Both the position numbers and the translations under genes were made by a program. The notes beneath the pieces were generated by a model, which saw only the letters and a program-made list of their open reading frames with translations, had not been told where the DNA came from and made no database searches. Shown here one piece after another: positions 5,111-8,617 of a stretch of 64,000 nt of DNA. Origin of the DNA: Gaiellales bacterium (lineage in GTDB: Bacteria > Actinomycetota > Thermoleophilia > Gaiellales > JAICJC01); NCBI GenBank assembly GCA_036403155.1, contig DASWRM010000037.1, positions 124,001 to 188,000 of the forward strand, read 5' to 3'. How positions within the stretch are numbered: position 1 is the first letter of the stretch; each line of letters begins with the position of its first letter.

Positions 5111-6346
5111 TCAGGCGGAGGCGCCGGCCGTCGCCAGCGCTGCGTCGACCTCGTCCGGGTCGGGTGCGACCGAGATCGTCTCGACCGACGGCTCGACGGC
5201 ATCGATCGTCTTCAACCCGTCACCGGTGATGTAGAGGACGACCGTCTCGCCGGCGCCGATCTCGCCACGCTCGGCGAGGCGCGCAAGCACCGCCGTCGTG
5301 ACCCCGCCCGCCGTCTCCGTGAAGATGCCGGTCGTGCGGGCCAGCAGGCGGATGCCCTCGACGATCTCGTCGTCCGGTACCGCCTCGATCGACCCGCCGG
5401 TGCGCCGCGCGACGTCGAGCGCGTAGACGCCGTCCGCGGGGCTGCCGATCGCCAGCGACTTCGCGATGCCGGTCGGCTTGACGGGGATCACCTCGTCGGC
5501 ACCGGCGGCGAAGGCGGTCGCGACAGGCGCGCATCCCGCCCCCTGCGACCCGTGCATGGCGGGCGCGGGGCCCGCAGGGAGCAGCCCGGCGGCGCGTCCC
5601 TCCTCGAACCCCTGCAGGATCTTCGTGTAGAGCGATCCGGATGCGATCGGCGCGACGACCCTGTCGGGCACGCGCCAGCCGAGCTGCTCCGCCGTCTCCA
5701 GGGCGATGGTCTTCGACCCCTCCGCGTAGTACGCGCGCATGTTCACGTTGACGAACGCCCAGGGCCGGTCATAGCTGAGCTCGGAGCAGAGGCGGTTCAC
5801 GTCGTCGTACGTGCCGTCGACGGCGAACACGGTGGCGCCGTACGCCGCCGCGGCGATGATCTTCTCCCGCTCGAGGTCACCCGGCACGAAGATGTACGTC
5901 GGCAGGCCGAGCGCCGCTCCCGCCGCGGCCGTGGCGCCGGCCAGGTTGCCCGTCGAGGCACAGGCGAGCGCCTCGAACCCGAGTTCGACCGACTTCGCGG
6001 CCGCGACGGCCACGACCCGGTCCTTGAACGAGTGCGTGGGGTTCGACGTCTCGGTCTTGACGTACAGCCGGCACGAAAGCCCCAGCTCGGCGGCCAGGCG
6101 ATCGGCAGGGATCAGCGGCGAGTTGCCAACGGGCAGACCGCGTGCCGGCGTGTCGACCGGCAGGAAGGCGGACCAGCGCCAGAGCGTCGCGGGGCCCTCG
6201 GCGATCTGCTCGCGCGTGACTCCGGCCGCGATGGCGGCGCGGTCGTAGGCCGCCTCGAGCGGGCCGAAGCAGCGGTCGCAGGCGAAACGCGCGTCGAGCG
6301 GGTGCTCGGCCCCACAGCCCTTACAGACCAGATGCGTTGCGTACAT
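5111..6346 (-). CDS. thrC: Threonine synthase
   Basis: 411 residues from ATG 6346. It converts O-phospho-L-homoserine to threonine using PLP. An N-terminal zinc-ribbon-like segment has Cys8, Cys11, Cys23 and Cys26 (CKGC and CDRC). The fold-type-II PLP core follows: NPTHSFKDR with PLP-binding Lys108, the phosphate loop ASTGNLAGATAA, and IFVPGDLEREK. The overall arrangement is that of the plant/archaeal-like class of bacterial ThrC. Its mRNA carries a SAM-I riboswitch, so threonine synthesis from the aspartate-family branch point is tied to the methionine/SAM pool. It is convergent with the debranching enzyme and divergent from a small membrane protein gene. No homoserine kinase or dehydrogenase is visible here. 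Confidence 0.97.
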   Translation of the reverse strand: MYATHLVCKGCGAEHPLDARFACDRCFGPLEAAYDRAAIAAGVTREQIAEGPATLWRWSAFLPVDTPARGLPVGNSPLIPADRLAAELGLSCRLYVKTETSNPTHSFKDRVVAVAAAKSVELGFEALACASTGNLAGATAAAGAALGLPTYIFVPGDLEREKIIAAAAYGATVFAVDGTYDDVNRLCSELSYDRPWAFVNVNMRAYYAEGSKTIALETAEQLGWRVPDRVVAPIASGSLYTKILQGFEEGRAAGLLPAGPAPAMHGSQGAGCAPVATAFAAGADEVIPVKPTGIAKSLAIGSPADGVYALDVARRTGGSIEAVPDDEIVEGIRLLARTTGIFTETAGGVTTAVLARLAERGEIGAGETVVLYITGDGLKTIDAVEPSVETISVAPDPDEVDAALATAGASA

Positions 6347-6349
6347 GTC

Positions 6350-6501
6350 AGTCTCCCGGAATGGGCCGAGCGATCGGCCGGTTCACATCTTTCGAGGCGG
6401 TCGCCTCGCCGGACGTGGCACCGTTCCCGCTGTCGCGGTGCGGTTGCCGAGGCTTCACAGGGCCGGTCCCTCCGCCTCTCTGGATGCGTTGCCGGGAAAC
6501 C
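6350..6501 (-). promoter_or_regulatory. Translational expression platform of the thrC SAM riboswitch
   Basis: The 10 bases just upstream of the aptamer (minus strand GGTTTCCCGG, 6492-6501) can pair with CCGGGAGACT (6350-6359), which contains the thrC ribosome-binding site, using eight Watson-Crick and two G-U pairs. This helix would close around aptamer stem P1, with a small hairpin GGCCGA-TCGC-TCGGCC (6364-6379) looped out. SAM binding, by stabilising P1, should favour the helix and hide the Shine-Dalgarno site. The pairing is read from the sequence; the switching direction is inferred. Confidence 0.7.
6384..6488 (-). ncRNA. SAM-I (S-box) riboswitch upstream of thrC
   Basis: Reading the minus strand from 6488, the transcript has P1 (CGCATC pairing with GATGTG at 6384-6389) and the S-box core TCCAGAGAGGCGGAGGGACC followed by GGCCCTGTGAAGCCTCGGCA and ACC. 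The second conserved block GGTGCCACGTCCGGCGAGGC and the P4 hairpin then lead to GAAAGATGTG. These are the near-invariant SAM-I elements: kink-turn, GGAGGGA...GGCCC P2, GAAGCC..GGCAACC P3/pseudoknot and GGTGC..A..TCC. The aptamer binds S-adenosylmethionine. It ends about 38 bases before the thrC start, leaving room for a translational platform. Confidence 0.96.
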
Positions 6502-6582
6502 CCGACGTCTGCTGGTTCAGTGGCCACATCGTAGTGAACGCCGCGCGGGGTGGTCAACGCGGAACCGCCGGGGGACGAGCGC

Positions 6583-6897: not shown

Positions 6898-8550
6898 TTA
6901 GGCCGCGACCTCTTCGCGCTCGCGCGCGACGGTCACGCCGATCAGCGACGCCAGCCGCGCGTCGCCCTGCTCGTCGGCCCAGGCACCGAAGGTCTGATCC
7001 GCCCGGCGCTCGCCCTTGTAGGCGCGGACGATCCGCTCGACCGCGAAGCGGGCGTCGGTGGCCGGGATCGCCTTCGATGCGATCCGCCGGCCGAAGGTCG
7101 CCCCCTCGCCCAGCCGCCCGCCGATGTGCAGGATGAAGCCCTGCACCCGCTCCCCGTCGGCCGTCTTCGTGATCCCGCCCTGCAGCCCGATGTCGGCGAT
7201 CTGGTACTGCGCGCAGGCGTTCGGGCAGCCGTTCAGGTTGATCCGGATCGAGCCGTCGAGGTCGCCGATCCGCCGCTCGAGGTGCTCGATCAGCTCGGCC
7301 GCCCGCTCCTTGGTCTCAACGATCGCCAGCTTGCAGAACTCCATGCCGGTGCACGAGATGATGCCGCGCCGAAACGCCGACGCCTCGGTCGGCAGGCCGA
7401 GGTCGCCGAGCTCCGCCGCCACCGTCTCCACGTGCTCGTCCGGCACGCCCACCACGATGATGTTCTGCCGGTTGGTGCACCGCAGCTCGCCGGCCCCGTA
7501 GCGGTCGGCGATGTCGGCGACGCCGATCATCTGGTCGGCGGTGAAGCGGCCGCGAAGCGTCGTGCCGCCGACGTAGTAGAGCCCGTGCTGTACCTGCGGG
7601 TGGATCCCGAGGTGGTCGCGGTGCGGGTCGATCGGGTCGCCGGGGACGACCGACGTCTCCAGCTCGCGGCCCAGCTTCCGCTCGACCTCCGCGCGGAGCT
7701 TCTCCACGCCCCACTCGTCGACCAGGAACTTGATCCGGGCGCGCGTGCGCTTGGTGCGCTTTCCCTCGTCGCGGAAGATCTCGGTGATCACCCGGCAGAC
7801 GTCGACCGCCTCGTCGGGGGGGACGAAGACGTCCAGCCGGCGGCCCATCTTGGCCGATGCGCCGAGCCCGCCGCCAACCCATACGTCGTAGCCGATGACG
7901 CCGTCCTTGTCGACCGCGATCAGGCCGATGTCGTTGATCTCGTGCTGCGCGCACCGGTGCACGCACGCGGACACCGAGACCTTGAACTTGCGCGGAAGGT
8001 TCGAGAAGTCGCGGTTACCGACGAAGGTACGCTCGAGCTCGGCGACCAGGGGGCGGGAATCGATCAGCTCGTGGCCGTCGACTCCGGCCAGGGGGCATCC
8101 GACCACGTTGCGCCAGACGTCCCCGCACGCCTGCGTGAACGACAGCCCGACGGCGTTCAGCTCGTCGAGGACGACGGGCATGTCCTCGATCGCGAGATTG
8201 TGCAGCTGGATGTTCTGGCGGGTGGTGATGTCGCCCATGCTGCGCCCGTACCGCTCGGCCAGCGAGCCGACGGTGCGAAGCTGCTCGGCGGTGACGATCC
8301 CGTTCGGGAACTTGACCCGGAGCATGAACAGCCCGTCCGTCTCCTCCGACGGGCCAGGATCTCCGCTCTCGGCCGACTCCGCCGCGCGCTGCGTGTAGAT
8401 CCCGTACCACCGAAACAGCGCGAGATCGTCCGGCTCGATCGCCTCGAACCCGAGGTCGGCGTACCGGTAGATGTCGGCAAGCACGTCGAGGCCGTCCTTG
8501 CGGGCCTTGATGTGCTCGATCTCGGGAAGCTTGACGGCGGTGTCGGTCAT
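6898..8550 (-). CDS. Ferredoxin-type siroheme sulfite/nitrite reductase
   Basis: 550 residues from ATG 8550, which has a GGAGAGG ribosome site; the open frame extends upstream only into promoter sequence. It has the two-fold repeated ferredoxin-like/siroheme architecture. The [4Fe-4S]-siroheme ligands are Cys400, Cys406 (CTGMEFC), Cys442 and Cys446 (CPNAC), and an N-half segment GDITTRQNIQLHN matches the siroheme-contact strand of this family. It performs a six-electron reduction of sulfite to sulfide or nitrite to ammonia in the cytoplasm. Sequence alone does not separate the two substrates with certainty, and no cys or nar genes are adjacent. A palindrome within its promoter suggests repression by the divergent GntR protein. 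Confidence 0.92.
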   Translation of the reverse strand: MTDTAVKLPEIEHIKARKDGLDVLADIYRYADLGFEAIEPDDLALFRWYGIYTQRAAESAESGDPGPSEETDGLFMLRVKFPNGIVTAEQLRTVGSLAERYGRSMGDITTRQNIQLHNLAIEDMPVVLDELNAVGLSFTQACGDVWRNVVGCPLAGVDGHELIDSRPLVAELERTFVGNRDFSNLPRKFKVSVSACVHRCAQHEINDIGLIAVDKDGVIGYDVWVGGGLGASAKMGRRLDVFVPPDEAVDVCRVITEIFRDEGKRTKRTRARIKFLVDEWGVEKLRAEVERKLGRELETSVVPGDPIDPHRDHLGIHPQVQHGLYYVGGTTLRGRFTADQMIGVADIADRYGAGELRCTNRQNIIVVGVPDEHVETVAAELGDLGLPTEASAFRRGIISCTGMEFCKLAIVETKERAAELIEHLERRIGDLDGSIRINLNGCPNACAQYQIADIGLQGGITKTADGERVQGFILHIGGRLGEGATFGRRIASKAIPATDARFAVERIVRAYKGERRADQTFGAWADEQGDARLASLIGVTVAREREEVAA

Positions 8551-8588
8551 GGCACCTCTCCAGGGGCGACGGCACGGACGTGCACCGC

Positions 8589-8617
8589 ACCGTAGCTGGT
8601 TTGGATCCAAACTTCAA
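8589..8617 (-). promoter_or_regulatory. Sulfite/nitrite reductase promoter with palindromic operator in the spacer
   Basis: On the minus strand: -35 TTGAAG (8612-8617), a 17-base spacer, and -10 TACGGT (8589-8594). The perfect 14-bp palindrome GTTTGGATCCAAAC (8599-8612) fills most of the spacer, where a bound repressor would block RNA polymerase. The divergent GntR/FCD protein is the natural candidate; this is inference from position and from the short palindromic sites typical of that family. Confidence 0.75.

What the first reader, a model, noticed from the sequence alone, without database searches (positions are those of the whole stretch)
6350..6501. SAM-I riboswitch on threonine synthase with a visible Shine-Dalgarno-sequestering helix
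The S-box core is essentially complete, yet the gene is thrC, not a methionine or sulfur gene. A 10-bp helix between the 5' flank (6492-6501) and the thrC ribosome site (6350-6359) closes directly around P1, giving a simple translational OFF switch. High SAM would reduce threonine synthesis. That is the reverse of the SAM-activated threonine synthase of plants, and would leave more homoserine phosphate or homoserine when methionine is already plentiful. Either the switch works in the opposite sense, or methionine synthesis in this organism is wired differently.
Basis: partly seen in the sequence, partly recalled or inferred. Interest (0 to 1): 0.78.

Follow-up and report, generated by a model that had tools for sequence, protein, structure and literature searches.

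The report
SAM riboswitch controlling MetM-type homocysteine synthase
The RNA switch is real, but the gene it controls is most likely not threonine synthase: it looks like MetM, a recently described look-alike enzyme that makes homocysteine for methionine, so switching it off when the methionine product SAM is plentiful makes ordinary sense.

Summary
RF00162 scores 79.4 bits (E 4.9e-17) at 6490-6382 on the minus strand, the only S-box in this genome. The 10-pair helix 6501-6492/6359-6350 over the ribosome site (GGGAG, 6 nt before the ATG) exists; three family relatives keep it through four two-sided pair changes. The physiological paradox disappears, because the gene is not the cell's ordinary threonine synthase. 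The genome has a separate canonical thrC directly before thrB. The S-box gene belongs to a well-supported sister clade with a changed active site (NPTHSFK motif). Of 80 named loci of this clade, about 68 have an S-box upstream, about 39 a CysO-like sulfur-carrier gene downstream, and 9 a NIL-domain gene. MetX, MetA, the DUF39 pathway and a clear MetY were not found here. These features match MetM, the homocysteine synthase from O-phosphohomoserine described in Streptomyces albulus (Hasebe 2024, seen here only through a citing paper), with its carrier MetO and SAM riboswitch. Best reading: a translational SAM OFF switch on a MetM orthologue, a new member of a known kind. Local twist: no metO beside it; a cysO lies in a moeZ-cysO-cysM-mec cluster elsewhere.

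The parts
6382..6490 (-). SAM-I (S-box) aptamer, RF00162
   Evidence: cmscan 79.4 bits, E 4.9e-17; only one in the genome
6492..6501 (-). 5' strand of the SD-sequestering helix (GGUUUCCCGG)
   Evidence: pairs 10/10 with 6359-6350; compensatory changes in G120-122
6350..6359 (-). 3' strand of the SD-sequestering helix (CCGGGAGACU), includes Shine-Dalgarno GGGAG at 6357-6353, 6 nt before the ATG at 6346
   Evidence: sequence; fold
6491..6506 (-). alternative 5' hairpin that would free the SD (putative ON state)
   Evidence: appears when the SD is held unpaired; 5' hairpins are also predicted in the flanks of the family relatives
6365..6380 (-). hairpin between aptamer and SD
   Evidence: minimum-energy fold
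5111..6346 (-). MetM-like PLP enzyme (named threonine synthase by standard models), 411 aa, N-terminal zinc-ribbon-like cysteines C8/C11/C23/C26, NPTHSFKDR motif; probable homocysteine synthase
   Evidence: families, active-site comparison, conserved cysteines, tree, neighbours in other genomes

Best explanation
A SAM-I riboswitch acts as a translational OFF switch on a MetM-type gene. The protein is a paralogue of threonine synthase that takes O-phosphohomoserine (made by hom and thrB) and a sulfur donor (the thiocarboxylate of a ThiS/MoaD/CysO-family carrier, or sulfide) to homocysteine, which is then methylated to methionine. When SAM is high, SAM binding holds P1, brings the 5' flank next to the ribosome site, and the 10-pair helix hides the SD, so homocysteine synthesis stops. 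When SAM is low the 5' flank can fold on itself and the SD is free. Shown here: aptamer, helix and its covariation, paralogy, altered active-site region, S-box and carrier linkage in other genomes, no detected MetX, MetA, DUF39 or clear MetY. Inferred: SAM binding, direction of switching, the enzyme's reaction in this organism, and its sulfur donor.
For: S-box strong and unique. Canonical ThrC (L038 9825-10877) directly before ThrB in the same genome. In relatives the S-box copy lies in clusters with hom, canonical thrC and thrB (G102: hom-thrC-thrB-ilvD-[S-box]-this gene-leuB-pheA). In the order, 90 examined S-boxes head this gene (37), MetY (21), homocysteine methyltransferase domains (18) and sulfite-reductase-type genes (3), with 11 unassigned: a methionine regulon. 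Against T. thermophilus ThrC, positions G58, T88, N157, R160, Q164, R242, P288 are H, L, R, Y, S, A, T in 36 of 36 copies, with the PLP lysine kept. The clade is split from all characterised ThrCs at 100/99. Of 80 named loci about 68 have an S-box upstream, about 39 a CysO-like carrier downstream, mostly directly, and 9 a NIL-domain gene. MetA and HcyBio: 0 of 129 genomes; MetX absent from G000; no MetY-length PF01053 hit among those listed for G000. MetM/MetO with a SAM riboswitch is reported for S. albulus, where MetM prevents methionine auxotrophy (PMC12172450 citing Hasebe 2024); a Streptomyces-sized genome has exactly S-box, this gene and a carrier in a row.
Against: No activity or ligand binding was measured. 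The MetM paper itself is not held, so the S. albulus sequence could not be aligned. There is no carrier gene beside the window's copy; the closest carrier belongs to a CysM cluster. MetX absence is not informative inside the order (7 both, 36 this gene only, 20 MetX only, 66 neither; Fisher p 0.49); across the phylum the inverse association is modest (odds ratio 0.45, p 7e-4, not corrected for relatedness). The cyanobacterial homologue (51.6% to MetM) still showed threonine synthase and deaminase activity in vitro. The fold model sequesters the SD even without P1.
Confidence: 0.87

Rival explanations
1. It is a true threonine synthase and the switch lowers threonine synthesis at high SAM, perhaps as a second isozyme.
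For: Passes the TIGR00260 thrC cut-off (242.5 against 167.1 bits); the Microcystis MetM-like protein has threonine synthase activity in vitro.
Against: A canonical ThrC is present beside ThrB; invariant active-site changes; carrier and NIL neighbours; S-box conserved on this copy in many families. The same TIGR00260 model also accepts the Streptomyces-type gene next to a carrier, so passing it does not discriminate.
Confidence: 0.05
2. Bifunctional: homocysteine synthase with residual threonine synthase activity, so SAM tunes the split of O-phosphohomoserine between two products of one enzyme (a variant of the best explanation, not exclusive with it).
For: Shared presumed substrate and fold; behaviour of the Microcystis homologue.
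Against: A dedicated ThrC exists; seven invariant changes in the active-site region.
Confidence: 0.15
3. A carrier-dependent cysteine synthase (CysM-like), or a cystathionine gamma-synthase using O-phosphohomoserine plus cysteine.
For: The linked carrier is of the CysO family (best match M. tuberculosis CysO, 3dwg chain C); S-boxes can control cysteine genes (general knowledge).
Against: The genome already has moeZ-cysO-cysM-mec plus a cystathionine beta-synthase; a Streptomyces-sized genome has two carriers, one of them beside this gene; the protein is ThrC-like and in relatives sits with hom and thrB.
Confidence: 0.06

Closest known systems
MetM/MetO of Streptomyces albulus (Hasebe et al. 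2024, AEM 90:e01247-24; known here through PMC12172450)
   Same: ThrC-like PLP enzyme, SAM riboswitch upstream, O-phosphohomoserine route; the Streptomyces-sized genome G151 with S-box, this gene and a carrier falls in the same clade as the window protein
   Different: No carrier gene next to the window's copy; a different branch (Thermoleophilia relatives); in this family the expression platform is a 5'-flank/SD helix
SAM-I riboswitch (S-box, RF00162)
   Same: Full-length match, 79.4 bits
   Different: The 5' flank of the aptamer, not a downstream anti-SD, pairs with the SD; the helix is kept only in the window's family among those examined
CysM/CysO/Mec/MoeZ of Mycobacterium tuberculosis
   Same: A PLP enzyme of the same superfamily (PF00291) linked to a CysO-family carrier; the window's genome has such a cluster on another contig
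   Different: CysM makes cysteine from O-phosphoserine; the window protein is ThrC-like and SAM-regulated
Threonine synthase ThrC (2d1f, 1uim, 2zsj)
   Same: Superfamily, PLP lysine motif, presumed substrate
   Different: Separate clade at 100/99 support, N-terminal zinc-ribbon-like domain, seven invariant changes in the active-site region

Membership tests
SAM-I riboswitch (RF00162) | Covariance-model score above the gathering threshold over the full aptamer | tested here: met
   79.4 against 44.4 bits, 1-108/108
SAM-I riboswitch (RF00162) | Binds SAM and changes gene expression | not testable with these tools
   Needs in-line probing or a reporter
Threonine synthase ThrC | Curated equivalog cut-off (TIGR00260) | tested here: met
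   242.5 against 167.1 bits; but genes next to sulfur carriers also pass
Threonine synthase ThrC | Groups with biochemically characterised ThrCs | tested here: not met
   Separated at 100/99 by long branches
Threonine synthase ThrC | Active-site-region residues conserved in characterised ThrCs | tested here: not met
   G58H, T88L, N157R, R160Y, Q164S, R242A, P288T in 36/36; PLP lysine kept
MetM homocysteine synthase | In the same clade as a Streptomyces-type gene that has the S-box plus carrier layout of metM-metO | tested here: met
   T2_G151 falls inside the clade and has the S-box and adjacent carrier; direct comparison with the S. albulus sequence was not possible
MetM homocysteine synthase | SAM riboswitch upstream (a common, not universal trait) | tested here: met
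   absent in Microcystis by PMC12172450
MetM homocysteine synthase | Sulfur carrier MetO encoded next door (a common, not defining trait) | tested here: not met
   Not next to the window gene; a CysO-like carrier lies at G000:C20
MetM homocysteine synthase | Makes homocysteine from O-phosphohomoserine | not testable with these tools
   Needs an enzyme assay or complementation

The most novel reading that the evidence does not exclude
In this lineage MetM has no carrier of its own and instead draws on the CysO made by the moeZ-cysO-cysM-mec cluster (or on free sulfide), so one sulfur carrier would feed both cysteine and homocysteine synthesis while SAM controls only the homocysteine branch; in Chloroflexi a NIL-domain protein would be a further partner that I did not find reported.
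Probability: 0.35. Interest if true: 0.5.

Novelty: new member of a known kind. Interest (0 to 1): 0.36.

Why it matters
It removes an apparent regulatory paradox and shows that genes named threonine synthase by standard models are, in a large ThrC-like clade across Actinomycetota and Chloroflexota, probably homocysteine synthases. That affects predictions of methionine auxotrophy from genomes: in the phylum sample 102 of 396 genomes have this gene and no MetX hit.

Tried and rejected
Reversed (SAM ON) switch: no need once the gene is MetM-like. Anticorrelation with MetX inside the order as proof of function: tested, not significant. General SD/5'-flank helix across the order: not supported outside the window's family. 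Carrier presence as a discriminating test in 36 genomes: not discriminating, because CysM clusters carry CysO too. Literature: no held paper on MetM itself (searches; failed look-ups); it surfaced through a citing paper. No structure prediction was run, as it would not tell homocysteine from threonine synthase.

Full report
Observation. The window holds one Rfam hit, RF00162 at 6490-6382 on the minus strand, 79.4 bits, E 4.9e-17, and the genome holds no other S-box. The 10-pair helix 6501-6492/6359-6350 is present, covers the Shine-Dalgarno GGGAG (6357-6353), and is part of the minimum-energy fold. Holding the SD single-stranded costs 4.9 kcal/mol, or 7.6 when P1 is formed; the SD-free fold uses a hairpin in the 5' flank itself, 6506-6491. 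In the four family relatives the helix persists: G120, G121 and G122 have CGAUCCCC with GGGGAUCG where the window has GUUUCCCG with CGGGAGAC, four pairs changed on both sides. Against shuffled flanks each helix alone is borderline (p 0.02-0.13), and 31 leaders from elsewhere in the order do not share it.

The gene. Standard models call 6346-5111 thrC (TIGR00260 242.5 bits, cut-off 167.1; PRK08197 251.6 bits, below its cut-off of 303). The genome has a second protein, 350 aa, that matches four solved bacterial threonine synthases at 389-408 bits, against 150-194 for the window protein. It is followed at once by a GHMP-type homoserine kinase, with homoserine dehydrogenase nearby. In several relatives all stand in one cluster, for example G102: hom, canonical thrC, thrB, ilvD, S-box, this gene, leuB, pheA (ilvD, leuB and pheA named from their sequences). 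Aligned to T. thermophilus ThrC, the S-box copies keep the PLP lysine but change G58 to H, T88 to L, N157 to R, R160 to Y, Q164 to S, R242 to A and P288 to T in 36 of 36. From memory, not checked here, several of these line the substrate pocket. A PMSF tree of 69 proteins puts the characterised ThrCs and the genome's own second ThrC on one side (100/100) and all S-box copies on the other (100/99).

Company it keeps. In 129 genomes of the order, 90 S-boxes with sequence in hand head this gene (37), MetY (21), homocysteine methyltransferase domains (18), sulfite-reductase-type genes (3) and unassigned frames (11, several of which are the same genes cut or extended). In the public genome collection, 80 loci of the clade were fetched, mostly from Actinomycetota and Chloroflexota, with one labelled Acidobacteria and one FCPU426. 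A core-motif scan found an S-box upstream in 56 and Rfam found 12 more among those the scan missed, about 68 of 80. Nine Chloroflexi loci scanned with Rfam have none. Downstream lies a ThiS-family carrier ending in GG in about 39 loci, most of them directly adjacent; its best solved match is M. tuberculosis CysO (3dwg chain C, 106 bits). A NIL-domain gene lies downstream in nine loci, eight of them Chloroflexi. NIL-domain proteins take part in the DUF39 homocysteine pathway (PMC5764234).

Pathway holes. MetA and HcyBio are absent from all 129 genomes. MetX is absent from the window's genome and its family (only weak, short hits). The only strong PF01053 hit listed for the genome is a match of about 370 residues on the contig of a cystathionine beta-synthase. 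Inside the order the gene and MetX are not significantly exclusive (7 both, 36 this gene only, 20 MetX only, 66 neither; p 0.49), so MetX absence alone proves nothing there. In 396 genomes across the phylum: 35 both, 102 this gene only, 112 MetX only, 147 neither; odds ratio 0.45, p 7e-4 without correction for relatedness. At least 57 of the 137 phylum genomes with the gene have the S-box within 400 nt upstream, counting only the 150 best S-boxes listed. G062, which has MetX, has this gene split in two frames.

What is known. A 2025 paper on Microcystis ThrC (PMC12172450) reports that Hasebe et al. 2024 found in Streptomyces albulus a homocysteine synthase, MetM, acting on O-phosphohomoserine, with a sulfur-carrier gene metO and an upstream SAM riboswitch, and that MetM prevents methionine auxotrophy. 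The original is not held. S. lividans has an RF00162 switch before a two-gene unit labelled threonine biosynthesis (PMC8079986). The Streptomyces-sized genome G151 shows S-box, this gene and a carrier in a row and falls in the window gene's clade. The homocysteine-synthase reading was reached from genome context before that paper was found; the agreement is strong support but makes the kind known.

How it most likely works. hom and thrB supply O-phosphohomoserine; the canonical ThrC takes it to threonine and the S-box enzyme to homocysteine. SAM, the end product, shuts translation of the second branch. The sulfur source here is open: the gene has no carrier beside it, but the genome has moeZ-cysO-cysM-mec on contig C20, with a carrier ending GGAR, so a shared carrier or free sulfide are both possible. 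All biochemical steps are inferred.

Verdict. Observation confirmed; gene identity and physiology corrected; a new member of a known kind, of moderate interest.

Noticed in passing
L163, L164, L166, L169, L170, L173, L178, L210 (Chloroflexi), L176 (FCPU426): A ~80-aa NIL-domain gene (PF09383) lies directly downstream of the MetM-like gene in the Chloroflexi loci (3.8 kb away in L176), in several together with a CysO-like carrier; most of these loci lack an S-box. A possible third partner of the pathway.
   Followed up: partly
L039:8961-10196 (G000:C50): A third ThrC-like protein of the same genome has arginine in place of the PLP lysine (NPTGSWRDR), so it may be a non-catalytic or repurposed homologue.
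   Followed up: no
L280:1399-4243 (G000:C20): moeZ-cysO-cysM-mec cluster; the carrier ends in GGAR, so it would need trimming to expose the GG terminus, as reported for HcyS-type carriers (from memory).
   Followed up: partly
L261, L262, L263 (G031, G022, G064): A second, more diverged NPTHSFK paralogue (clade B, 41-46% to the window protein) on the same contig as the S-box gene in several genomes.
   Followed up: partly
L056 (G062:C1:2108653-2109836): S-box gene split into two frames in a genome that has MetX, suggesting decay where the acetylhomoserine route exists (or a sequencing error).
   Followed up: no
window 6898-8610 (-): Ferredoxin nitrite/sulfite reductase-type gene directly upstream of the riboswitch on the same strand; related genes carry their own S-box in some relatives (L040, L046, L049, L075), so it may be the sulfite reductase that feeds sulfide.
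   Followed up: partly
L051, L052, L083, L088, L043, L097: S-box hits in the order whose downstream reading frame could not be assigned.
   Followed up: no
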